Shown: piece after piece, positions 4,775-21,114 of the stretch
Layout of the letters: every line of letters begins with the position of its first letter
Position numbering within the stretch: the first letter of the stretch is position 1
IMG/VR virus record: IMGVR_UViG_3300035698_004366
Location: 1 to 21,114 of that record
Reading direction: 5' to 3' (one strand)
DNA length: 21,114 nt
DNA from: a virus
Notes under the pieces: model-generated
Told to the model about the DNA's origin: nothing
Seen by the model: the letters and a program-made list of their open reading frames with translations, nothing else
Database searches by the model: none
Program-made: the position numbers and the translations under genes

Positions 4775-5074
4775 TTATCTGACCTTATTCTCTTGTATTG
4801 AAATAATCAAATTGCCACCAGTCAATTCCCACCCGTTGTTCAATTTGATTGAACCCTTTGATTTGTTCTTCTTGACGATCATCCCCCGAATCTGCGGGCC
4901 ATTAGTTGATTGAACAAGAACTTCATAACCAATTTGAAGTAAATCCATCGATTCTAAAATAGTACGAAAAGTTCGTGCTTTCTTTTTCTTATGAAGTTCT
5001 CGAACCTCTTTAGGTTCGATTGTTATCGTTGGATCAATAATACCTTCATTGACAAAATCATTGAATAATCGCAT
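4775..5074 (-). CDS. Small hypothetical protein with a leader-like N-terminus and possible SH3-like barrel
   Basis: This 99-aa protein is not recognised. The N-terminus MRLFNDFVNE is followed by a basic helix-like stretch (residues 22-40, HKKKKAR). A short beta-rich second half (47-92) has the spacing of a KOW/SH3-like small barrel: GYEVLVQ, GMIVKKN, GSIKLNN, GWELTGGNLIIS. A good ribosome binding sequence (AGAGAGGA) lies about 9 nt before the ATG, and the stop is 3 nt from the start of the large DUF4815-type gene, so the two are probably translated together. The first ten residues loosely resemble the leader of the 487-aa protein at 12738-14201 and T4 internal-protein leaders. The gene sits between gp8 and the DUF4815 protein, where T4 has gp9/gp10, but it resembles neither. 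It could be a small virion protein or a non-structural accessory. It looks real from spacing, ribosome binding site and lack of a better competing frame. Confidence 0.75.
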   Translation of the reverse strand: MRLFNDFVNEGIIDPTITIEPKEVRELHKKKKARTFRTILESMDLLQIGYEVLVQSTNGPQIRGMIVKKNKSKGSIKLNNGWELTGGNLIISIQENKVR

Positions 5075-8442: not shown

Positions 8443-10233
8443 TTATGCGTTCTTATCGTCTATCATAGAGATTGAGATGTCACCGTCTTCTATGGTGATG
8501 ATCTGATTTCGCACTGCGAGGACATCATCATATTTAGGCGTAACCATGAGACTTACAAGAGAACTTGTATCTGGTTTGAATGAGAGAATCTCCACCTCAC
8601 CAGTCTCATAGTTCACAGTGCCAGCAGTTGAATTGAGAATTAGTCTATCACCACTTGGATTGATCTTGAAGATTCTCAGATTCCCTTTAGCGTCATCATC
8701 GAATGCACAAGTATCTTCATTCCATGTGAATGTCGAGCTACTCATTGTTCCCTGTACACTATTGGAGGGATAATCAATAGGATTCGAAAACTGAACAGTA
8801 TAGTTATTATTCGAGGACGCGAAGGTCTGAACCTTCTTCTTGATTCTCGTTGTCAAGGTATTGTGCTTGATAGAAGCATCGGAACCATCAACCATTGTGA
8901 CAAATGTGGAGTGTTGGAAATCGTTGTCGAATACTGACAACTCAGTGTCTCGATAATTCTGAATGTCGGATAGGACAATGGCTCTAAGATCTCCAGCGGC
9001 CCTTTGTGTCTCCGTACTATTGTAAACTACCTTAGAGGTGGGCATGAGATAGATGTAATCGGGATCAACGAATTCTGGTTGAATACTGACTACAGAATGG
9101 TTCTTAATGACATTCTCCACAATCTCATCTTTCAAAGATTCGATCAGATAGAGGCCTTCTGTGGGTTTAATTGAGATGAAGACCTTTCCATACTCTGGCG
9201 GAACATTATCATCCCCACCCCATACGTGGATGGACTTGATGTTGGTATACTCGGAAAGGAGTTTGGTCTTGTAGTCGAGTGCAGTTACGGCGCGATTTTG
9301 GGCCTCATAATTCAACGGTGCCTTATAGCGTATGGATGCGAGTGATTCTGGATTAGCACCACCATAAGAGTATGAAGGATAACTTAATGGAGCATCTGTG
9401 GTCATTCCAACAGAAGTTGTGTAATCGGTGAGAGCAACCGAGAAATCTCTGGCCCCATTTCCCTCAACTCCATGAGTTTTGAGATAATTGAGAATGACAA
9501 GATTACCATCTACAACCTTCTTGCCAACAACACCATCTCCGAAATACACTTCAAATCTTCCATCATCAGATTCCTGAAGAAAGTATGCTGTTGTATTCGA
9601 GGTGAGAGGATTCAAGTCATCATGTAAAGTATATACTGTCTGAGCACTTGAATGAAGACCATCCTGAACAGTTACACTAAGCGTAGAAGTATCAGCATCA
9701 TTAGTGGGAATGATGAATTTCTGATCTGGGTCATTAGAGTCTACTAATGTTGTATGGGTTAGCCACGTTCCTTCCTTAATTGGTAATTCTCTCTTGAAGA
9801 TTTCGGAAGTTCCGTTAGATGTGAGTGTGTAGGAATCATCTGGGAAGTACTTGTAGACTGTTCCATCAATCGTAGTGGTGAAGAGTGTAGTCTTGTCTAT
9901 CGTTATCGAGGTGGATGCTCCAACATCTGCGAGTCCATAAACATCGACATAGGCCGTAGATGCTCTTCTTGATGTGGGAACATAGCCCAAGAGTTTAGCG
10001 ATAGAAACTAGTGAACTTCTACGGCCTGCACTGTCGATGAAAGACTCATTAGCCACCATATTCAAATATACTGATACATAATGAGAGTTGTAGGACAAGA
10101 GATCGACGAGAACGTTAAGTCCAGATCCCGTGAAATCATAATCTGCGAATTGAGATTGTGCTTGCAGAAACTCTAACAAGCTGGACTTCAATCGATTGAA
10201 GTCCAGCTCAGATACGGAAAACTTTGTTGGCAT
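8443..10233 (-). CDS. gp6: Baseplate wedge protein gp6 (gpJ family)
   Basis: This 596-aa protein is the gp6/gpJ-family wedge subunit; in T4, gp6 dimers form the iris ring that holds the wedges around the hub. The N-terminus is diagnostic: FSVSELDFNRLKSSLLEFL (5-23), DYDFTGSGLNVLVDLLSYNS (31-50), HYVSVYLNMVANESFIDSA (51-69), RRSSLVSIAKLLGYVPTSRRAS (71-92). The central region (about 205-345) carries YFLQESDDGRFEVYFGDGVVGKK, GGANPESLASIRYKAPLNYEAQNRAVTALDYKTKLL, which is the conserved gpJ-family core. Length is close to T4 gp6 (660 aa). AGGA is 9 nt before the ATG on the minus strand, in a 29-nt gap after the nuclease gene. That gap also contains TGTAAATAA, a weak late-promoter-like match. The neighbours gp25 upstream and gp7/gp8-like genes downstream give the standard wedge order. 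Confidence 0.95.
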   Translation of the reverse strand: MPTKFSVSELDFNRLKSSLLEFLQAQSQFADYDFTGSGLNVLVDLLSYNSHYVSVYLNMVANESFIDSAGRRSSLVSIAKLLGYVPTSRRASTAYVDVYGLADVGASTSITIDKTTLFTTTIDGTVYKYFPDDSYTLTSNGTSEIFKRELPIKEGTWLTHTTLVDSNDPDQKFIIPTNDADTSTLSVTVQDGLHSSAQTVYTLHDDLNPLTSNTTAYFLQESDDGRFEVYFGDGVVGKKVVDGNLVILNYLKTHGVEGNGARDFSVALTDYTTSVGMTTDAPLSYPSYSYGGANPESLASIRYKAPLNYEAQNRAVTALDYKTKLLSEYTNIKSIHVWGGDDNVPPEYGKVFISIKPTEGLYLIESLKDEIVENVIKNHSVVSIQPEFVDPDYIYLMPTSKVVYNSTETQRAAGDLRAIVLSDIQNYRDTELSVFDNDFQHSTFVTMVDGSDASIKHNTLTTRIKKKVQTFASSNNNYTVQFSNPIDYPSNSVQGTMSSSTFTWNEDTCAFDDDAKGNLRIFKINPSGDRLILNSTAGTVNYETGEVEILSFKPDTSSLVSLMVTPKYDDVLAVRNQIITIEDGDISISMIDDKNA

Positions 10234-10262: not shown

Positions 10263-10748
10263 CTACTGGATCAAGAACATTATATCACCATATGGTTCGA
10301 AATTGTAAAATATGTGTTTTCTCACATCAATGCTTTCATCTTCAAATCTTCCAGTAACGTGATTCTCTCGAATGAGATATGTACTAAGTTGATCGTCAAG
10401 ATCCTCTCGATAGATGTCTCCGAGAACTCTACTGAAGTTATCCAATTCTCCATAACTCACCAGATACAGCGTGCCAGTAGATAGAAATTCTTGAGTAGCG
10501 GATGTTGCGAGAGTCCCCGAAGTCTTCACTGACTTCTCATAAGCATCACATCCGAGAATCCGCACTCTCTTGCTGACAAATGCGATATCAAAACCAAGAT
10601 CGATATCAACAATGACAGTATCACCATCAACGATTCTCTCGACTGAGGTTATGGGATATTTGAAGATATGGCGCTCTTCCTCCACCTCAGCAGATGCACA
10701 GAGGGACAAACAAACCAATAGGGTTAAATAGACAAGCATTTTCATCAT
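10263..10748 (-). CDS. Thermonuclease-like (SNase) protein with signal peptide
   Basis: The 161-aa protein begins with a typical export signal: MMKM, a hydrophobic core (residues 5-18), and a CASA segment giving a plausible signal-peptidase cut after Ala20. The body is a staphylococcal-nuclease-like domain: ITSVERIVDGDTVIVDID (33-50), KRVRILGCDAYEKS (60-73), DNFSRVLGDIY (103-113). By comparison with S. aureus nuclease, Arg63, Glu71 and Arg107 take the positions of catalytic Arg35, Glu43 and Arg87, and Asp43 and Asp68 those of calcium ligands Asp21 and Asp40. The usual TPE after the second Asp is AYE here. Related SNase-like genes occur in marine T4-like phages next to baseplate genes, from memory. 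The ATG overlaps the gp25 stop by one base (TAATG), so translation is coupled to a late structural gene. Likely roles are nuclease action in the periplasm or at the envelope, or a virion part; a lipoprotein is less likely because the residue before Cys17 is Leu. Confidence 0.85.
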   Translation of the reverse strand: MMKMLVYLTLLVCLSLCASAEVEEERHIFKYPITSVERIVDGDTVIVDIDLGFDIAFVSKRVRILGCDAYEKSVKTSGTLATSATQEFLSTGTLYLVSYGELDNFSRVLGDIYREDLDDQLSTYLIRENHVTGRFEDESIDVRKHIFYNFEPYGDIMFLIQ

Positions 10749-11146
10749 TATCGTAACCTTTCCAGAAATAAATTTACATCTACCAATGCAGCAGATGAGT
10801 TCTTCAAGAAGTATGAGATATGCACCTCATATCCGTTATTCGCATAATCCGCCACCACCTCTACATTATCAAGAGAGACTCTTGACTCAAAATTGTCCAC
10901 AGTCTCCTCTATGAACTTAGTGATATTTATCGCGGTTAAGGGACTGAGATTCTCAAAGAGGCTATATCTGATATTTGAACCAATATCAGGTTCAAATGGT
11001 CGCTCATAGTGATTCGTGAGAATCAGATTCTTCAGAGACGCCTTAATAGCATCCTCACCAGTGAGCTTAATCAAATCCTTGGTCACTGGGTGGATTCCAA
11101 AGTTGAGATCGAGGTCTGAGAAAGTGGTGGATGTTCTAGCAGGCAT
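10748..11146 (-). CDS. gp25: Baseplate wedge protein gp25
   Basis: gp25 family wedge protein, which in T4 links the gp6/gp53 wedge core to the sheath and shares a fold with type VI secretion TssE. The hallmark is HYERPFEPDIGSNIRYSLFE in the middle of the chain, preceded by FSDLDLNFGIHPVTKDL near the N-terminus and followed by the C-terminal YEVHISYFLKNS. With the ATG at 11146 the product is 132 aa, the same length as T4 gp25. An upstream in-frame GTG at 11173 would add nine residues (first residues MTVLGLNRH), but these have no family match and overlap the PAAR stop by 4 bases. They would also turn a CTAAATA promoter-like motif into codons, so I chose the ATG. There is no clear Shine-Dalgarno before it. 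The stop overlaps the nuclease ATG by one base. Confidence 0.94.
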   Translation of the reverse strand: MPARTSTTFSDLDLNFGIHPVTKDLIKLTGEDAIKASLKNLILTNHYERPFEPDIGSNIRYSLFENLSPLTAINITKFIEETVDNFESRVSLDNVEVVADYANNGYEVHISYFLKNSSAALVDVNLFLERLR

Positions 11147-11149
11147 ATG

Positions 11150-11160
11150 TCTATTTAGTC
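11150..11160 (-). promoter_or_regulatory. Late-promoter-like motif before gp25
   Basis: On the minus strand the gap between the PAAR stop and the gp25 ATG reads GACTAAATAG, then ACAT, then ATG. T4 late promoters have a TATAAATA -10 element; CTAAATA is a one-step shorter relative. The identical 10-mer occurs in both arms of the inverted repeat at 17616-17645. If it is a -10 element, the transcript would start almost on the gp25 ATG, leaving little or no leader, which fits the missing Shine-Dalgarno. It is seen in sequence; promoter activity is inferred. Confidence 0.4.
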
Positions 11161-11169
11161 CCAGCACTG

Positions 11170-11442
11170 TCACCCAACAAAGATATTCGAACTACCAGTG
11201 AGGACTCGTGCGCCACATGAGATGCTATCCCCGATTCTCCCCACGGCTGTCAAGTTACAGAAAACACTTGAAGAGCCAGAAGAAAGTCTACCATTATGTT
11301 GTGACCAAGCATCCCCAATTCTATGTATGGCAGGATAGTTACCATATGTATTAGGTGAGCCTTGAGTTGCTGGCATAGGCCCATGTGCTGGATAGTGGGG
11401 TGTGCTTAAATCACCCACTCTACAAACTGGAGGTGCTGACAT
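11170..11442 (-). CDS. PAAR-domain spike tip protein (T4 gp5.4-like)
   Basis: This 90-aa protein has the PAAR layout: an N-terminal PPVCRVGDLSTPHYPAHGP, a central YPAIHRIGDAWSQHNG, and a C-terminal LTAVGRIGDSISCGARVLTGSSNIFVG. The repeated (H/V)R(I/V)GD units and C-terminal NIFVG strand are characteristic. Cys7, His16/His20, His41/His49 and Cys82 are candidate metal ligands for the tip. PAAR proteins, including T4 gp5.4, cap the end of the gp5 beta-helix and form the point that pierces the outer membrane. The context agrees: its ATG is 9 nt after the gp5-like stop with AGGAA about 6 nt before it. Length is normal for a bare PAAR tip, with no effector domain attached. Confidence 0.9.
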   Translation of the reverse strand: MSAPPVCRVGDLSTPHYPAHGPMPATQGSPNTYGNYPAIHRIGDAWSQHNGRLSSGSSSVFCNLTAVGRIGDSISCGARVLTGSSNIFVG

Positions 11443-11451
11443 ATCCTATTC

Positions 11452-12726
11452 CTATTTACCAGGGTTGATAATCAGATACTTACCGAGTATGGTAATGTAG
11501 TCTAGAGAAAATTCTGTCAGTGTTCCTATTGTAAATCTTGCCACCTTTCCTAATGTGGTGTCAGTTCTATCACCCTTAACGAGAGATGTTGACGCGCCTC
11601 CAATAGTTGTCATATGATCTCCCATAACCAAATCTGTCCTACCTCCCTGAATCGTCTTGGTCTTATCTCCCTTAATCATCTCAGTTACATTACCTTCAAC
11701 GAATCTCTTCACATTTCCAGTAATCCACTCATTCAGATTTCCATTGACATAGGTGTTAATATCTCCATCAAGGGTGTTGATATTGATATCCCCCTGATTC
11801 ACACTCACATTCAAGTCACCTGAATCAGAAATCTGAATGTCGAGATTCTGTCCCTCTTGATCGGTGTTTACAAGGAGTTTTGCCCCCTTGTCCACCGTCA
11901 TATGACAGAGGCCGTCAACATGAAGTAGATTGTTCTTGAGTACTATTCCGTAATTATCTCTTAAGACCTTAGTTACTGAGGAACCATCTGGATGAATCTC
12001 GTTGAATGTTCCCGATCTGTGATATCTATGAGTCCTTTCGGCACCTGGAGTATCATCATGTTCCTCAATGTGTCCACTTTCAGTTTCTCTAACTTGATTG
12101 AAAGGATAGACAGCGGCATATGGAGTATCTGGTTCATCGAAAGGTTCATTGGGAGATGTCTCCGATCCCATGTGATGAGCCGCTGATGTGGAGATACCCT
12201 TCTGAGCACCATCAAGTTTTGTTTGGACTATGGTTTGGGCAACTTTCTCATTTCTCGCAAGTCTATTCGTATCTGGTTCATTCAGATGTGATTCCCTTGG
12301 ATATCCTCCATAGGTACCTTCTGAGAACGTTCCACCAGAACCATCATCAATGTAATCTACTGAAATGGGTGGTTGTGTGCCGATGTTCTTCTGGGGATCA
12401 TTGAAGCCAATCTGAGGTAATCCCCGCTCAATGGGAATTCCTCCGAGACTTCCCATAATCACAGGGTCTTGGAGATCATCTCCATCTCGAAAGAAGACTA
12501 CAACCCAACTTCCCTCTACAAGACCTGTAGGAGCAGTTCCTATGCTATTCATAGCTGAAGAGGTTATTGGCTGCATGGGCGTAGCCCATGGGAGTTCTTC
12601 AGTAGGAATCTGAATCTTCTCTTCGGTGTGAATGCCAAGGACTCGAACGCGACAACGACCCAACATCGCTGGATCATTGCGATCCTCGATTACTCCCACA
12701 CCCCATACGAAATTGCCATTATTCAT
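11452..12726 (-). CDS. gp5: Baseplate hub spike, gp5-like without lysozyme domain
   Basis: This 424-aa protein is the central membrane-piercing spike. Residues 1-100 are the gp5 N-terminal OB fold: FVWGVGVIEDRNDPAMLGRCRVRVLGIH, IPTEELPWATPMQPITSSAM, VEGSWVVVFFRDGDDLQDPVIMGSLGG, very close to T4 gp5 (GVVEDRMDPLKLGRVRVRVVGLH, IPTEKLPWMSVIQPITSAAM). Where T4 gp5 has its lysozyme domain, only a 110-residue Gly/Pro/Asp-rich linker is present (about 105-215), with no lysozyme-like catalytic motif. From about 230 comes the triple beta-helix, ending in eleven eight-residue repeats at 327-414 (VNGNLNEW, ITGNVKRF, VEGNVTEM, IKGDKTKT, IQGGRTDL, VMGDHMTT, IGGASTSL, VKGDRTDT and three looser ones), the VxGxxxxx octad of gp5. 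It is followed by the PAAR tip gene and preceded 11 nt upstream by the 487-aa gene. Cell-wall cutting must come from another protein or not be needed. Confidence 0.92.
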   Translation of the reverse strand: MNNGNFVWGVGVIEDRNDPAMLGRCRVRVLGIHTEEKIQIPTEELPWATPMQPITSSAMNSIGTAPTGLVEGSWVVVFFRDGDDLQDPVIMGSLGGIPIERGLPQIGFNDPQKNIGTQPPISVDYIDDGSGGTFSEGTYGGYPRESHLNEPDTNRLARNEKVAQTIVQTKLDGAQKGISTSAAHHMGSETSPNEPFDEPDTPYAAVYPFNQVRETESGHIEEHDDTPGAERTHRYHRSGTFNEIHPDGSSVTKVLRDNYGIVLKNNLLHVDGLCHMTVDKGAKLLVNTDQEGQNLDIQISDSGDLNVSVNQGDININTLDGDINTYVNGNLNEWITGNVKRFVEGNVTEMIKGDKTKTIQGGRTDLVMGDHMTTIGGASTSLVKGDRTDTTLGKVARFTIGTLTEFSLDYITILGKYLIINPGK

Positions 12727-12737
12727 AGATGTCTTCT

Positions 12738-14201
12738 TTATCCAATATACTTATTCAGTTTTCTCTGGAAATTGTTTACGTTTTTGATCTGTGCTGAAGT
12801 TTGAGCGGCATCGCGTTGGTCCTCTATGTTGTTGGCGATTGTTGGAAGATCCAATCTCTTTAGCCCAGATTTTCCCCAAGCCTTAAGCATTTTATCAAGA
12901 AATGGGATTTCCTCTTGAATATAGAAAGATGTTAGAGTTCTTAGAAGTTGATTCGCAGACTTCTTGAAGACGTTACTCTGAATGAAGTCCTTAAAAATCT
13001 CATCAACCCCTTCAACCATTAAGAATCTCTCGAAAACCTCTTCGACATCCTCCGGAGAAACTTTTTTCTTAGTATCAAATAAACCGTGCTTATTGAGTAA
13101 TCCGAGCGAATCTATATCTTTTTTGTTTATGAGATTTACCATAGAACTATTGTCGAAATCATAGGAAAACTCTGAAAGTTTTAGACCTCGTTTGAACAGA
13201 GATTTCAGAATTCGGAATGGCTTTTTCTGATAATGGACGACATTCACTAATATATCTTCCTTTTTGAAAGCGCTTATATCACCGCCCTTCTCTATATACT
13301 CAATAATCTCCTCATCAGATGTAGGATTTTGAAGATTTGTTTTGAGTTCATCCCTTTCCCAAGTTCCTGGAATATCGGGTTCTGCTTCCAAGGTTCCAGC
13401 AACACCAGTCAAACGATTCATCATCCCCATAATACGGGGCGGGATAGTAGAATGCTTCTGCAATTCCCACGAGCCAGCTCTTAATTTCATATCCAGTGCT
13501 CTCTTAATCCACCAAAAACTGTAATTTTTCTGAAAACTTTTAACCTTGCTAAGCATCAGACCAGTGTTATGTTCAATATCAAAGATGTGATCTATCCCCT
13601 CAATCATCGCATTTCTTGAAGTAGCCTTATTCAACTGAAGCCATGCATTAGCGATCATAGCCCATTTGGCCCCACCATATGATTCGCTCCATGCACTTTG
13701 AAATCCGAAGAGTTTCGCTGCCAAAAAGATGAACCTTTTTGGTTTCCAGCCCGATTTCTTAAATGCTATGAACAGTTCTTGCGCCGCGTTGTCAGTTGGC
13801 TGGTACCTGATTCCACTCTGATCCCATTCTTTATCAGTAACTTTATCTAAGAAGAGGTGGTTCAGGAACTTTTCATGTTTGGCTATGAATTTCTCAACTT
13901 CGGGAGAATCATCAGAGAAAAAAACGTCATCGCGGGCGACATACTGGAATTCACTCAAGATGGCGATGAGAGTAGCATCCAGGAGACTCTTCTTCTGAAC
14001 CTTGAGGATCTTGTCAATCGATTCACCCAAGATAGAATAAAGATCTGCTTCGGTACTTGGGCTGAAAAAGTTAATCTTAGAGTTCTGAGTCTGGAAATAG
14101 AGACTCCACAAGTAGAAGTCAAAGAGACGCTTCTCTTTATCCTTCGGCACCTTATAGGTGTAGGATATTGATTCCTTGAAAAATTGCTTATAGGTCTTCA
14201 T
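12738..14201 (-). CDS. Unrecognised 487-aa protein with a T4 internal-protein-like leader
   Basis: I do not recognise a named family. The N-terminus MKTYKQFFKES closely matches the capsid-targeting leader of T4 internal proteins as I remember it (MKTYQEFIAE), including the Glu after which the T4 prohead protease cuts. Residues 25-240 are mostly helical, with conserved-looking signatures YGGAKWAMIANAWLQL (175-190) and IDHIFDIEHNTGLML (203-217). Residues about 292-375 look like irregular ankyrin-style helical repeats (SDEEIIEYIEKGGDIS..., PFRILKSLFKRGLKLSEF, DSLGLLNKHGLFD). There is no signal peptide or membrane segment. Its ATG overlaps the gp27-like stop by one base (TAATG) and its stop is 11 nt before gp5, so it is co-expressed with the hub. 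The T4 hub operon has no counterpart at this point. Possibilities are an injected internal protein, a hub accessory, or inserted cargo. Confidence 0.85.
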   Translation of the reverse strand: MKTYKQFFKESISYTYKVPKDKEKRLFDFYLWSLYFQTQNSKINFFSPSTEADLYSILGESIDKILKVQKKSLLDATLIAILSEFQYVARDDVFFSDDSPEVEKFIAKHEKFLNHLFLDKVTDKEWDQSGIRYQPTDNAAQELFIAFKKSGWKPKRFIFLAAKLFGFQSAWSESYGGAKWAMIANAWLQLNKATSRNAMIEGIDHIFDIEHNTGLMLSKVKSFQKNYSFWWIKRALDMKLRAGSWELQKHSTIPPRIMGMMNRLTGVAGTLEAEPDIPGTWERDELKTNLQNPTSDEEIIEYIEKGGDISAFKKEDILVNVVHYQKKPFRILKSLFKRGLKLSEFSYDFDNSSMVNLINKKDIDSLGLLNKHGLFDTKKKVSPEDVEEVFERFLMVEGVDEIFKDFIQSNVFKKSANQLLRTLTSFYIQEEIPFLDKMLKAWGKSGLKRLDLPTIANNIEDQRDAAQTSAQIKNVNNFQRKLNKYIG

Positions 14202-15553
14202 TAGTTGATAAATACTCCCCGAGTCTCTGAATCTTCTCGAATTCCCCCAAGGATCTCTCTTGAGAGCGAATCTTTAATTAACTCAATGTGCATTGTGTAT
14301 TCCTCTTTATTTATCACATGGTGAATGCTCGTAACCATAAATTTACCACTATAGTAAGTGTCAATAACCTGTTTGGAACTTTCCTGATGCTCTATGGAGG
14401 GAATCTTCAGACGAACAACATCACCAGGGCGTAAAGTGCTATCACCAGCAATAACGATATTGATTCGAACAGATGAAGACTGTCCCATTAGTGATTCTCT
14501 GAATTGCTTCCAATACTCCACACCATTCGTTGGATAGTTATCCCATTGCATAGCATGTTTCGGAAGAGTCGAGCACCGCTGATTTGGACTTCCAGAATAT
14601 TCTCCCTCAATGTGATTACATAGAGGAGCATTCCCAAGATGTCCATAATTTTTCCACGTCTTGAGATAGTCGAATGTATGTCTCTGCCACTTCTTGTAGT
14701 AGACATCGTGAGTCACTAGATTACTCCCATACATTCCACCATGAAGATTACGCAAGATGTCAAACTCATTCTCAATGGAATAATGTCGAATGGCTCTCAT
14801 GTCACTATCAAGAGTTCTCGCAAATGGATTGTCTGCCTCTCGGATGTTAGCAGGTTGGAAGATGTACTCAAGGTCTCCAGGTTCTGTATTCTCTGAATAG
14901 AGGAATTTCTGCTTCACTGGACTTGCTATCATCGACTCTATAGACCTGAAATGTAGGCCATTATTATCCTCATAGAAGAGGTAACTGGGTGTTGCAGCAT
15001 CCTTTGAGGTCGTTCTGGCCGCTATCCAATTGATCGTCTTGATTGGTTGCCAGTTCGGAACTACGAAGTTCAGAGGCCACAGACTCTCTTCGAAGAAGTA
15101 CTTCTTTTCACTGAGAAGGTCATTCTTAATTATCTGACCAACTACCTGTTCAGCATACTTAGTCCGATAGGATCGACTGATCCGAGTCTTGAGATTGGTT
15201 AACATCTCTATAGAAGTGAAGTTCAATATGTATTGCTGATCCGCATCCTTGATCGGTTCTCTACTGGCTATGTTGTAGATGAAACCAGTGAAGTTGAGAG
15301 CGTTCTGCACGACTGGAACATCGATCTTGATTCGCATCTTCTCATGGCCAAGAATGGGAAGATTATGAGGAAGATTGACAGAATCTCGAAGGAGAATGTT
15401 CCCCGTCATCGTTGGTTGAAATAGGTCTTCGAAGATGTTGATCTCTTCCATGAGCGCTCTAACATCGATTCTATTCGCATCGATAGGCTCAATGGTCAAC
15501 TCATTGAGCTTGTAATCTCCTGGAGACTCTATAGTTTTGCGGTCTTTAGGCAT
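14201..15553 (-). CDS. gp27: Baseplate hub protein, gp27-like
   Basis: A 450-aa protein placed between gp53 and the gp5 spike. The chain starts with a beta-rich domain: YKLNELTIEPIDANRIDVRALMEEINIFEDLFQPTMTGNILLRD (13-56), LPILGHEKMRIKI (69-81), FTGFIYNIASREPI (93-106). This is typical of hub proteins of the gp27/gpD group. A helical segment with LKTRISRSYRTKYAEQVVGQIIKNDL follows (about 120-145), then NFVVPNWQPIKTINWIAART (162-181). The C-terminus has GDVVRLKIPSIEHQ and YYSGKFMVTSIHHVINKEEYTMHIELIKDS (400-429), the usual closing barrel of hub proteins. T4 gp27 is 391 aa and forms the trimer on which gp5 sits. Sequence identity to T4 gp27 is not obvious to me, so the call rests on domain style and position. 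The ATG is one base after the gp53 stop; the stop overlaps the next ATG. Confidence 0.75.
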   Translation of the reverse strand: MPKDRKTIESPGDYKLNELTIEPIDANRIDVRALMEEINIFEDLFQPTMTGNILLRDSVNLPHNLPILGHEKMRIKIDVPVVQNALNFTGFIYNIASREPIKDADQQYILNFTSIEMLTNLKTRISRSYRTKYAEQVVGQIIKNDLLSEKKYFFEESLWPLNFVVPNWQPIKTINWIAARTTSKDAATPSYLFYEDNNGLHFRSIESMIASPVKQKFLYSENTEPGDLEYIFQPANIREADNPFARTLDSDMRAIRHYSIENEFDILRNLHGGMYGSNLVTHDVYYKKWQRHTFDYLKTWKNYGHLGNAPLCNHIEGEYSGSPNQRCSTLPKHAMQWDNYPTNGVEYWKQFRESLMGQSSSVRINIVIAGDSTLRPGDVVRLKIPSIEHQESSKQVIDTYYSGKFMVTSIHHVINKEEYTMHIELIKDSLSREILGGIREDSETRGVFIN

Positions 15554-15554
15554 T

Positions 15555-16604
15555 CTATATACGGCTCATTCGGCTCTCGAATTCTTCCACAAACTGATCG
15601 ATATACTCTGGCTTCAGAAGATTGATGTTTCTTCTCGCCTCATTTTGCGTGCGCTCATATGTCGCATTCGTCACAGGCCCCTTAATTCCTGGATTAGCCC
15701 ATGCTGAACTAACCGTACTTTGAATTTCTGTGGTACCGATGTCATAGTCTTTACCAACCGCAGTAATGGTATTCGAATAACCTCTACTGACCACATTTCC
15801 ATCACTGTTCTCATAGTGGTGTGTGGATTCATATGAGAGATTTCCATCTAACATAAGCATCGTAGCGTTACTTCCAATTTGGTTAATTGGATTTGACTTA
15901 TTGAATCGTGGGCCACTCGTAATAGATACTGTAAGTTGTTGATTTTCAGCACTCCATGCTATCACGTTCCCCGTAGATTGTGAGCCTATTTGATGTACAT
16001 AGACGGGGGAAGTGGTATTAACAGTGAATCCACCTTGAGCATAGTATGAGAGTTCTGAGGTAGCATTGACCACATAGGTCTCTGTTCCTCGAACCTGAGT
16101 CTGAGTGATCTTGTTGGTTACATCAAATGCCCCCGAATTCCGTCTACAATAGAGTCTTGTATTAGCAGCCTCATAGAATAGAACATCTGCATTCGCCCCT
16201 GAGGTTGTTTGGATTATTACATTTGATCCATCAAATGTTCCATCAATGGTGGAATTCTCTAGATCAATTATGAAGACATCCTTCTCGCCTCTGACGGTAT
16301 ATCCAGGATACTTCTTCTGAATGAGCCTATCAAGGTCATCTGAGGCCAAGGCCCAGTCAAAGAATGGATTCACGATATCATTCATGATGAGAATCACCCA
16401 GTGAAGAGTTGCGTCACCATACAGTTTGTGTGCGATATCCTCTGGACGCTCACCTTCCTTCACCTCATAAGTGTAGAAGACTCCACCACTATTCAAGAGA
16501 CCTCTCTTCAGTTGAAGTCGATGAAGAATATCTCGAACAAGAGTCTCTCTCTTCGTGTTGTCGAGATTGTAGTAAATCTGAGGAAAACTTGAAAAGTAAG
16601 GCAT
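15555..16604 (-). CDS. gp53: Baseplate wedge protein gp53 with large C-terminal extension or insertion
   Basis: This 349-aa protein starts with the gp53 signature MPYFSSFPQIYYNLDN and a LysM-like domain, VFYTYEVKEGERPEDIAHKLYGDATLHWVILIMNDIVNPFFDW (42-84), then DLDRLIQKKYPGY (90-102). In T4 gp53 (196 aa) this domain clamps gp6 and gp25 at the centre of the wedge. Between about 115 and 300 is an added beta-rich region. It contains two copies of a small module, TTSGANADVLFYEAANTRLYCRRNSGAF (133-160) and QSTGNVIAWSAENQQLTVSITSGPRF (209-234). The C-terminal YERTQNEARRNINLLKPEYIDQFVEEFESRM returns to the T4-type ending. AAGGA is 9 nt before the ATG, inside the end of the gp48-like gene (gap 3 nt). 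Confidence 0.88.
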   Translation of the reverse strand: MPYFSSFPQIYYNLDNTKRETLVRDILHRLQLKRGLLNSGGVFYTYEVKEGERPEDIAHKLYGDATLHWVILIMNDIVNPFFDWALASDDLDRLIQKKYPGYTVRGEKDVFIIDLENSTIDGTFDGSNVIIQTTSGANADVLFYEAANTRLYCRRNSGAFDVTNKITQTQVRGTETYVVNATSELSYYAQGGFTVNTTSPVYVHQIGSQSTGNVIAWSAENQQLTVSITSGPRFNKSNPINQIGSNATMLMLDGNLSYESTHHYENSDGNVVSRGYSNTITAVGKDYDIGTTEIQSTVSSAWANPGIKGPVTNATYERTQNEARRNINLLKPEYIDQFVEEFESRMSRI

Positions 16605-16607
16605 CTG

Positions 16608-17579
16608 TTAATATCCTTCGTTGATTCGCGCTTTGGTGAGAATTTCAAGTTCGTTGAATCCGAGAGTTAATTCCAATTCGACGGGAGCACCATTTTTGAA
16701 TGCAGCCCACACAGCCGCGCCAGTATAATTGGTCTCGATACTCGTGAGAGCGCAGGTCGATATCTTGTTCAAGTAGACATTGGGGCCATTCTTGTGGTAA
16801 TACTGAATGTCAAATTCAGCTGGATATATGAAAAATCTTGAGTTAGGCCCGCCCTTCATCTCTGGATGTGCGTAGAACTTGAGCGTCTTGATAATGTTGT
16901 CTATCACATGAGATTCTTGCTCAGTTGTTGGGGCAAACTTGAATGCAAAGGAGAATGCTCGGAAGTTCATGCCCTTGAAGTACTGCTCCATATGCGGATT
17001 GGTTGCCATTCGCTGATTACCGAGTAACTGAGATTTGAGTTGATCTGCGTCGATTCCAGTCACTGCGGAAGCTGCTCTAGCACCCACAGTAGAGGCTACT
17101 TCACTCTTTATGGTACCAAAGTCGCCTAGAGAAGATAACTTAGACAGAATGTCCTCTTGATTCTCATACTCGAAGCCATATGAGGCTCCAATCGAGGCTG
17201 GCATATGAAGGGCTATAGCTGACTTGATACGGCGAGTTGCTCTTGTCTTGATCTCGGAACTTTCGGGAAGAACTGAGTTGATAATCTTGGTTGCTGATTC
17301 AGGTATCGCGGTAGAAGAGTTTCTCGATCTATTTGAATTCGGATCCTTGGCCCCAGCAGTGCCAGTTAATATCGGATCATCTCCACCACTTTGAGTGGTA
17401 TTAAGAAAGTTGCTTTTGTATTTCTCACCCCTATATGCCACCTCATTGATATAGAAGACGATAAAGTCTTCTAACCCATCTGACCCCAAAGTCTGGGGAT
17501 ACATCAGATTCTGGTAGTCATAGTTGTTTGCTTCAAGGGCAGCGAAAGGGCCTCGATTGCTTGTATTCCTATGTGACAT
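16608..17579 (-). CDS. gp48: Baseplate tail-tube cap, gp48-like
   Basis: The 323-aa protein is first in the leftward operon. N-terminal SDGLEDFIVFYINEVAYRGEKYKSNFLN is followed by a low-complexity Ser/Asn/Ala-rich stretch (about 60-110), as in T4 gp48. The C-terminal half carries FSFAFKFAPTTEQESHVIDNIIKTLKFYAHPEMKG, RFFIYPAEFDIQYYHKNG, LNKISTCALTSIETNYTG, and a terminal PVELELTLGFNELEILTKARINEGY. That last segment resembles the T4 gp48 ending (FTLEITMREIITLNRASLYAGTF). gp48 sits on top of the hub and, with gp54, starts the tail tube. AGGGG lies 5 nt before the ATG. A 30-40 nt leader would follow if transcription starts at the CTAAATA element at 17616-17626. It could be called a gp54/gp48 superfamily protein; gp48 fits best by its ending. 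Confidence 0.8.
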   Translation of the reverse strand: MSHRNTSNRGPFAALEANNYDYQNLMYPQTLGSDGLEDFIVFYINEVAYRGEKYKSNFLNTTQSGGDDPILTGTAGAKDPNSNRSRNSSTAIPESATKIINSVLPESSEIKTRATRRIKSAIALHMPASIGASYGFEYENQEDILSKLSSLGDFGTIKSEVASTVGARAASAVTGIDADQLKSQLLGNQRMATNPHMEQYFKGMNFRAFSFAFKFAPTTEQESHVIDNIIKTLKFYAHPEMKGGPNSRFFIYPAEFDIQYYHKNGPNVYLNKISTCALTSIETNYTGAAVWAAFKNGAPVELELTLGFNELEILTKARINEGY

Positions 17580-20341: not shown

Positions 20342-21114
20342 ATGCCACCTGATAACAACAAGAGTGATCTCGCCCAAATCAACGCTGAGTTGAAGAAAAA
20401 TAATGAACGCTTTAGCAATCTCGTCAAGAACGAGACTGCTATGGCTTCTCTTGTGTTACAAAATAAACAAATCGCAGAGAACATCGGGGAAGTAGGAGAG
20501 TCTCTTAAGGGGAGTGTTGCTAAGGACGTAACTAAGAAACTTGAGGGGTTAGTAGAGTCTCAAAAAGAGAATAATGTCATAACCTCCAGATGGAATAGAG
20601 ACCTCACCAGAATTAAAGAACTAGAACTTGCAGCAATGTCTGACCTTGTGGATGATGAGGGTGAGCGCGAGGAAGTTCTCAAACTAATCAAATCAGTCAA
20701 AGAGAATACACAACGAAATACAGTAGGGACTAAAAACCTACTTAGTGGTATTGGTGGTGCTATCAAGTCTCAAGTAGACTTGACTGCTATCGCAGCAGGG
20801 TTTGCGACTAAGAGTCCTCTTATGGCTCTCGGTATGAAAATTGGCTTGGAATTCTTCAAGAAAAGAAGCGAGGACAAGAAGAGAGCCAAAGATGAAATGG
20901 CAGAAAGAATTCTCCTACGCAATAAAGAATTGATAATGCAAGAAGAGGCAATTAAGGATAGAGAAGAACAAAATTTCTCTGTGCCTGAAGTCAATCTTCC
21001 ATCTATAGAGATTCCAGATGTTGTTTTAGAGACACCTGAAGTCAATCTTCCATCTATAGAGATTCCAGATGTTGTTGTAGAGACACCTGAAGTCAATCTT
21101 CCATCTATAGAGAT
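20342..21114 (+). CDS. Candidate tape-measure protein, N-terminal part (runs off right edge)
   Basis: The frame is open from the ATG at 20342 to the edge (257 codons), with AAGGA about 9 nt before the start and an in-frame TGA 6 nt upstream. Residues 1-125 are charged heptad-like helix with coiled-coil potential (AQINAELKKNNERF, KDVTKKLEGLVESQKE). Residues 131-172 contain a hydrophobic Gly/Ala segment (NLLSGIGGA..., LTAIAAGFATKSPLMALGMKIGLEFF), then a very charged helix (173-211). From residue 215 comes a 17-residue Pro-containing repeat (PEVNLPSIEIPDVV plus L/V, E, T). The gene lies directly after the gp26/gp51 frameshift pair, the usual slot for the tail-length ruler, and the coiled-coil-plus-hydrophobic pattern fits. 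The proline repeat is unusual for a ruler. No sequence identity to T4 gp29 is claimed. Confidence 0.7.
   Translation, partial: MPPDNNKSDLAQINAELKKNNERFSNLVKNETAMASLVLQNKQIAENIGEVGESLKGSVAKDVTKKLEGLVESQKENNVITSRWNRDLTRIKELELAAMSDLVDDEGEREEVLKLIKSVKENTQRNTVGTKNLLSGIGGAIKSQVDLTAIAAGFATKSPLMALGMKIGLEFFKKRSEDKKRAKDEMAERILLRNKELIMQEEAIKDREEQNFSVPEVNLPSIEIPDVVLETPEVNLPSIEIPDVVVETPEVNLPSIE
20984..21114 (+). repeat. 51-bp tandem repeat (17-codon unit), continuing beyond the window
   Basis: Unit 1 is 20984-21034, unit 2 is 21035-21085, and unit 3 starts at 21086 and is cut by the edge after 29 bases. Units 1 and 2 differ by one base (GTTGTTTTAGAG against GTTGTTGTAGAG, Leu to Val). The third agrees with both as far as seen. 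The unit encodes PEVNLPSIEIPDVV(L/V)ET. Such identity at silent positions points to recent duplication or ongoing homogenisation. The repeat is in frame within the candidate tape-measure gene. Confidence 0.97.

What the first reader, a model, noticed from the sequence alone, without database searches (positions are those of the whole stretch)
12738..14201. Cargo-like 487-aa gene inside the hub operon with a T4 capsid-targeting-type leader
The first ten residues (MKTYKQFFKE) match the leader of T4 internal proteins (MKTYQEFIAE, from memory), which sends proteins into the prohead and is cut after Glu by the prohead protease. The gene is translationally coupled to gp27-like and gp5 genes, where T4 has no counterpart, and has an ankyrin-like C-terminal half and unfamiliar conserved-looking motifs (YGGAKWAMIANAW, IDHIFDIEHNTG). 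It may be a protein packaged in the head and injected with DNA, such as an anti-defence effector. Alternatively it may ride on the spike.
Basis: partly seen in the sequence, partly recalled or inferred. Interest (0 to 1): 0.7.

Follow-up and report, generated by a model that had tools for sequence, protein, structure and literature searches.

The report
Probable head-packaged phage protein, unnamed domain
A T4-like phage carries, inserted among its tail-baseplate genes, a gene whose first ten residues look like the tag that sends proteins into the phage head; relatives in other phages make it likely that it is a protein carried in the virus particle and injected into the host, built on a widespread helical domain that no library used here names.

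Summary
The gene is real: 12738-14201, minus strand, 487 aa, between gp27-like and gp5-like hub genes, with TAATG overlap to gp27. Its leader MKTYKQFFKE matches T4 IPII/IPIII (MKTYQEFIAE) at 6 of 10 positions, which only 4 of 11,667 open ATG starts in the fetched loci reach. Residues ~11-245 are a conserved all-helical domain ('X') with no Pfam, NCBIfam, PADLOC or solved-fold match, but present in 48 further IMG/VR loci and in cellular genomes. X occurs (a) alone beside PPDK-like and phosphatase-like genes in siphophages, (b) fused to PPDK ATP-grasp and swivel domains in place of the PEP/pyruvate domain, and (c) without PPDK in T4-like and jumbo phages and in 3,000-3,900-aa polyvalent-like proteins. 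The window gene falls in branch (c). There, X genes carry short leaders shared with unrelated neighbours (9 of 10 consecutive genes in one contig), form tandem arrays, or sit in a structural operon. The gp27-gp5 slot is empty in the nearest syntenic relatives. Packaging is therefore well supported by comparison but not shown. X's activity is unknown; a phosphoryl-handling role is inferred. The ankyrin claim was not confirmed.

The parts
12738..14201 (-). gene X, 487 aa, candidate head-packaged (ejection) protein
   Evidence: accessory insertion between gp27 and gp5
14172..14201 (-). codons 1-10, leader MKTYKQFFKE; predicted prohead-protease cut after Glu10 (E|S)
   Evidence: 6/10 identity to T4 IPII/IPIII leader; leader-sharing clusters in relatives
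13467..14171 (-). helical domain X, residues 11-245; invariant F29, E84, G176, G177, W180, D204, H211, N212, K219; the usual R86/H87 are Q/Y here
   Evidence: phrog_20946 E=4.5e-5
12741..13334 (-). residues 290-487, helical, probably repeat-like; no detectable relatives
14201..15553 (-). gp27-like baseplate hub gene, upstream, coupled by TAATG
   Evidence: phrog_350 E=2e-92
11452..12726 (-). gp5-like hub/spike gene, downstream
   Evidence: Gp5_OB E=1e-25, phrog_430
11170..11442 (-). PAAR spike-tip protein
   Evidence: phrog_281
10748..11173 (-). gp25-like baseplate wedge protein
   Evidence: phrog_261 E=9e-47
8443..10233 (-). gp6-like baseplate wedge protein
   Evidence: phrog_219 E=2e-160
15555..16604 (-). 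gp53-like baseplate wedge protein
   Evidence: Phage_gp53 E=2e-14
16608..17579 (-). baseplate tail-tube cap protein (gp48-like)
   Evidence: phrog_230 E=7e-60
4775..5074 (-). second gene with a similar leader, MRLFNDFVNE|G, 99 aa, downstream in the same strand run
   Evidence: no PHROG match

Best explanation
Gene 12738-14201 is an accessory late gene for a head-packaged, injected protein. Inferred steps: it is made with the hub proteins; its leader docks it in the prohead core; the prohead protease cuts it after Glu10; the mature protein (Ser11-487) enters the host with the DNA. There the conserved helical domain X engages a target tied to phosphoryl transfer, since in other genomes X takes the place of the acceptor-substrate domain of PPDK-type dikinases and neighbours phosphatase-like genes. 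The variable helical C-terminal half probably selects the partner. Shown: the gene, the leader match, the X family and its contexts. Not shown: packaging, cleavage, injection and activity. Because R86/H87 are lost here, this copy may bind rather than catalyse.
For: Leader: 6/10 to T4 IPII/IPIII, rare among ATG starts. CTS function and removal by gp21 in T4 IPs and Alt are published (PMC7411985; PMC3012670). Relatives: in G016 (locus L043) X lies in a run where 9 of 10 consecutive called genes begin MRFK[DE]YYL.E, MSF.KYL.E or close variants; contig-wide the leader is on 18/104 genes there against 1/395 internal Met positions. In G001 (L012) six tandem X copies lie in a run of genes with like leaders, and G012 is similar. 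L061 has two leader-bearing X genes in a structural operon (capsid, head-tail adaptor, sheath stabiliser, X, X, terminase, sheath, tube). An S77 prohead protease is present in G001, G003, G005, G006, G009 and LR756511. X lies inside 3,000-3,900-aa phage proteins, one also with ART and GNAT domains; polyvalent proteins with such domains are predicted to be packaged and injected (PMC5512222, PMC7824862). T4 alt, a packaged effector, also lies next to a baseplate gene. The slot is empty in L078, L080, BUCT-ZZ01, RL38J1 and P-SSM2. PPDK-X fusions match TIGR01828 only up to position ~525 of 865, then X; phosphatase-like neighbours.
Against: No virion data. The window record is 21 kb and holds no protease or capsid genes. 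The leader differs from T4's at four positions and P3 is Phe rather than Ile. Over all N-terminal X members the [ILVFM]xE[AGS] motif is only modestly enriched (10/35 vs 95/788, p=0.009, paralogues not independent, motif chosen after looking), and the first leader regex was not significantly enriched (3/35 vs 24/788, p=0.10). Leaders also occur on housekeeping-like enzymes in relatives (CCA-adding enzyme, kinase, nucleotidyltransferase), whose packaging is unknown. X's activity is inferred from fusions only; branch (c) has no PPDK.
Confidence: 0.55

Rival explanations
1. The leader is a general N-terminal signature of accessory proteins in these phages (for expression, folding or another localisation), and X acts in the infected cell without being packaged.
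For: In G016 and G001 the leader is on enzymes such as a CCA-adding enzyme, an AAA_33 kinase and a cytidylyltransferase-like protein; T4's own RNA-repair enzymes are not known to be packaged (own knowledge).
Against: In T4 the leader regex picks out only IPII and IPIII among 87 called genes; X and leader genes lie in structural operons in the window and in L061.
Confidence: 0.22
2. X is a hub-associated accessory protein: a baseplate assembly factor or extra hub subunit, made at the right time by coupling to gp27.
For: Tight TAATG coupling to gp27 and an 11-nt gap to gp5.
Against: The slot is empty in syntenic relatives; the X family occurs in siphophages, giant proteins and cellular PPDK fusions without baseplates.
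Confidence: 0.15
3. X rides on the spike/PAAR tip and is delivered by tail contraction.
For: It lies next to gp5, and a PAAR gene is in the operon.
Against: No PAAR, gp5-binding or toxin domain is detected in X; relatives lie away from spike genes (no window baseplate protein has a hit in the X loci).
Confidence: 0.05

Closest known systems
T4 internal proteins IPI/IPII/IPIII and Alt (CTS-bearing ejection proteins)
   Same: Short N-terminal leader of the MKTY..F..E type ending in Glu; diverse bodies behind a shared leader; accessory genes; Alt also adjacent to a baseplate gene
   Different: Body unrelated to IPs or Alt (no Pfam ART match); 487 aa against about 95-193 aa for the IPs; packaging not shown
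phrog_20946 (unknown-function PHROG)
   Same: All 37 aligned X members, the window's included, match it
   Different: Window protein matches only about 54 residues with E=4.5e-5, and has leader, extra C-terminal half and Q86/Y87
Phage and CPR/Obscuribacterales PPDK-X fusions with adjacent phosphatase-like gene
   Same: Same X domain
   Different: Window X has no ATP-grasp or swivel domain; none is seen elsewhere in the 21-kb record
Rifampin phosphotransferase / HpeHI-type dikinases
   Same: Modular plan: ATP-grasp, phosphohistidine swivel, separate acceptor-binding domain (PMC4844700, PMC12167813)
   Different: No fold match of X to any solved domain was found; the window protein lacks the other two modules
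Phage polyvalent proteins (Iyer et al. 2017)
   Same: X occurs inside giant phage proteins, one with ART and GNAT domains
   Different: Window protein is a small stand-alone form

Membership tests
T4-type CTS-bearing ejection proteins | N-terminal leader like MKTYQEFIAE with Glu at the cleavage position | tested here: met
   MKTYKQFFKE, 6/10 identical, one of 4 such among 11,667 ATG starts
T4-type CTS-bearing ejection proteins | Leader shared with unrelated proteins of the same phage | tested here: inconclusive
   In the 21-kb record one other gene, 4775-5074 MRLFNDFVNE; clearly met in related contigs G016, G001, G012
T4-type CTS-bearing ejection proteins | T4-like prohead protease in the same phage | tested here: inconclusive
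   None in the 21-kb fragment; S77 found in six related records
T4-type CTS-bearing ejection proteins | Cleaved after Glu, present in virion, injected | not testable with these tools
   needs proteomics
X family (phrog_20946) | E84, YGG..W, D..hDL.HN, K219 pattern over about 230 aa | tested here: met
   F29, E84, G176, G177, W180, D204, H211, N212, K219 present; phrog_20946 E=4.5e-5
X family, ExRH sub-motif (common, not universal, so not used as a defining feature) | ExRH motif (R in 44/52, H in 49/52) | tested here: not met
   E84, Q86, Y87 in the window protein
Ankyrin-repeat proteins | Recognisable ankyrin repeats in the C-terminal half | tested here: inconclusive
   no Pfam Ank match at E<1; low-confidence model, generic helical matches
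PPDK/RPH-type dikinases | ATP-grasp and phosphohistidine swivel domains | tested here: not met
   absent from the window protein; present in X fusions elsewhere
PPDK/RPH-type dikinases | X shares the fold of a known acceptor-binding domain | tested here: inconclusive
   no Foldseek match at E<0.7, best Z 4.5
Alt-type ADP-ribosyltransferases | ART domain | tested here: not met
   no ART family matched by the window protein
Known anti-phage defence proteins (PADLOC) | match to a defence model | tested here: not met
   0 families for P0001, P0002, PPDK-X fusions and two downstream genes

The most novel reading that the evidence does not exclude
X is an undescribed injected-effector domain recruited from dikinase/phosphatase systems, and the leader marks a packaged arsenal in a set of T4-like phages (tandem X arrays plus leader-bearing RNA-repair-like enzymes such as a CCA-adding enzyme, polynucleotide-kinase-like and ligase-like proteins) delivered with the DNA to repair or rewire the host at entry.
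Probability: 0.25. Interest if true: 0.8.

Novelty: new variant of a known kind. Interest (0 to 1): 0.58.

Why it matters
Few injected proteins of tailed phages are known outside T4, P1, N4 and phiKZ-like phages, partly because their bodies are so diverse. Here a short leader, shared in clusters by unrelated genes, gives a sequence rule for picking candidate head cargo in T4-like phages that cannot be cultured. The domain behind it links phage cargo with cellular dikinase/phosphatase pairs and appears undescribed in the libraries used, so it gives a defined, testable enzyme-family question.

Tried and rejected
Close relatives by single-protein scans of viral contigs: none for X or gp27. Known fold: no Foldseek match below E 0.7 in the PDB for either model; BFVD matches at probability 0.85-0.97 are unnamed viral proteins of 326-478 aa, probably family members but not checked; VIA-align best Z 4.5 for the domain, which does not exclude a known fold. 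PDB sequence profile search: nothing. T4 late promoter TATAAATA in the window: none; sigma-70-like sites at chance level. Thymidine-hypermodification idea for the PPDK cassette: no supporting paper among those held. C-terminal half: no relative in the loci searched. Spike cargo: rejected for lack of any supporting feature. A gp5/gp27-conserved role: rejected because the slot is empty in syntenic relatives.

Full report
OBSERVATION. The gp27-like stop TAA overlaps its ATG by one base (CTAATG, with GGGGAG upstream), and gp5 begins 11 nt after its stop. Neighbours were identified by profile: tail-tube cap, gp53, gp27, X, gp5, PAAR, gp25, an SNase-type nuclease, gp6, then further wedge genes, all on the minus strand; head closure, DNA end protector, tail tube and hub genes are divergent on the plus strand. 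This is a T4-like structural region. The record is a 21,114-base virus fragment with no other sequence held.

LEADER. T4 IPII and IPIII were read from AF158101: both begin MKTYQEFIAEA. The window protein begins MKTYKQFFKESIS, 6 of 10 identical with Glu in register. Among 11,667 distinct ATG starts with 60 or more open codons in the fetched non-T4 loci only four reach 6/10, this one included. A leader regex matched 2 of 87 called genes in 66 kb of T4 (IPII, IPIII only), 3 of 196 in phage Melnitz, and 2 of 18 in the window, the second being 4775-5074 (MRLFNDFVNE|G). In T4 the CTS of the IPs and Alt docks them in the prohead core and is cut by gp21 (PMC7411985).

THE BODY. tblastn against 50,697 phage records finds one clear relative, LR756511 (595 kb), with two tandem paralogues at about 27-30% identity over residues 13-239. 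Using these, weaker hits in Vibrio, Stenotrophomonas and Rhodobacter siphophages were aligned and the profile recovered 48 IMG/VR loci; an iterated HMM unites them. In 52 distinct domains E84, G176, G177, W180, D204, H211, N212 and K219 are invariant; R86 (44/52) and H87 (49/52) are common, but Q and Y in the window protein. No Pfam family over its cut-off, and no PADLOC or NCBIfam family, matches the window protein; all 37 aligned members match the unknown phrog_20946. AlphaFold gives an all-helical domain (pLDDT 80, pTM 0.80) with no PDB match. The C-terminal half is helical, of low confidence and without relatives; 'ankyrin-like' stays unproven.

CONTEXTS OF X. A tree of 76 domains (deep supports low) separates three groupings. 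(1) Solo X in siphophages, beside a PPDK-like gene, one or two phosphatase-like genes and DNA polymerase I. (2) X fused behind PPDK ATP-grasp and swivel domains in some phages and in CPR and Obscuribacterales genomes: 13 of 17 genome loci carry PPDK upstream of X, many with a phosphatase-like gene beside it. These fusions match pyruvate phosphate dikinase only up to position ~525 of 865, so X stands where the PEP/pyruvate domain would be. (3) X without PPDK in T4-like and jumbo phages, in HAD-like fusions, and inside 3,000-3,900-aa proteins, one with ART and GNAT domains. The window protein is in group 3, in a clade (support 0.69) with the leader-bearing tandem copies. In the L027-type arrays and in L030 a phosphatase-like gene is still next to X.

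PACKAGING EVIDENCE FROM RELATIVES. In G016 (contig of L043) 9 of 10 consecutive called genes around X begin with the same leader although their bodies differ; across the contig 18 of 104 genes have it against 1 of 395 internal Met positions. G001 (contig of L012) has seven X copies, six in tandem within a run of genes with like leaders; its portal, terminase, sheath, capsid and baseplate genes lack the leader, while a 131-aa gene just before the portal has it. Other leader-bearing proteins include a CCA-adding enzyme, an AAA_33 kinase, a cytidylyltransferase-like protein, DUF5662 and a polynucleotide-kinase-like protein. L061, filed as a Cyclobacteriaceae MAG contig, has a phage structural operon with two leader-bearing X genes between the sheath stabiliser and terminase. 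T4-like prohead protease (S77) is present in six of the 25 records searched, which are mostly fragments. A broader test is weaker: [ILVFM]xE[AGS] near the N-terminus in 10/35 N-terminal X genes against 95/788 others (p=0.009, non-independent, motif chosen after looking), and the looser leader regex 3/35 vs 24/788 (p=0.10).

ACCESSORY STATUS. gp27 and gp5 are adjacent in the nearest syntenic contigs L078 and L080, in BUCT-ZZ01, RL38J1 and P-SSM2; Mosig has one small gene and Melnitz several genes after gp27. The gene is thus an insertion into a late operon. T4 alt, a packaged effector, also lies next to a baseplate gene, and the Alt family is reported to be associated with baseplate genes in several T4-like phages (PMC5512222).

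MECHANISM. Best reading: late synthesis, leader-directed entry into the prohead, cleavage after Glu10, injection, then action by X on a target connected with phosphoryl transfer, with the C-terminal half giving specificity. The first half of this chain rests on comparison with T4 and on leader-sharing clusters; the last part rests on domain fusions only and is weak. RPH and HpeHI show that such dikinases use a separate acceptor domain (PMC4844700, PMC12167813), which is what X would be like; membership is not claimed.

VERDICT. A probable new ejection protein built on a domain that none of the libraries used here names; the packaging class is known, the domain and its distribution are the new part.

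Noticed in passing
window 4775-5074 (-): A 99-aa gene at the end of the same strand run has a similar leader, MRLFNDFVNE|G, and no PHROG match: a second candidate cargo gene.
   Followed up: partly
window 10263-10748 (-): SNase-type nuclease (phrog_452) inside the baseplate operon that appears to begin with a signal peptide (MMKMLVYLTLLVCLSLCASA); phage Melnitz has a 'nuclease-like protein' at the matching place before gp25.
   Followed up: no
L043 3726-10108 and contig G016: Run of genes for unrelated proteins that share only an MRFK[DE]YYL.E-type leader; includes a CCA-adding enzyme, and elsewhere in the contig a kinase, a cytidylyltransferase-like protein and a protein with a ligase-like KTDGQ motif: looks like a packaged RNA-repair kit.
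   Followed up: partly
L012 6577-14442; L027 6632-14758; L034 6559-11039: Tandem arrays of six, five and three X paralogues with variable C-termini.
   Followed up: partly
L063, L070, L071, L076 and other genome-contig loci: PPDK ATP-grasp + swivel + X fusions with an adjacent phosphatase-like gene in CPR bacteria and Obscuribacterales, several copies in one Obscuribacter genome; a possible kinase/phosphatase system without a name in PADLOC or NCBIfam.
   Followed up: partly
L061: Contig filed under a Cyclobacteriaceae MAG is a T4-like phage structural operon.
   Followed up: yes
L018, L020, L026, L028: X fused behind an N-terminal HAD-like domain (FDFDDTLAKTPAKVHVVKNG) in 1,200-1,900-aa proteins.
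   Followed up: no
window 20770-21096: Repetitive ORF (TSGVSTTTSGISIDGRL repeats) on the minus strand at the record's end.
   Followed up: no
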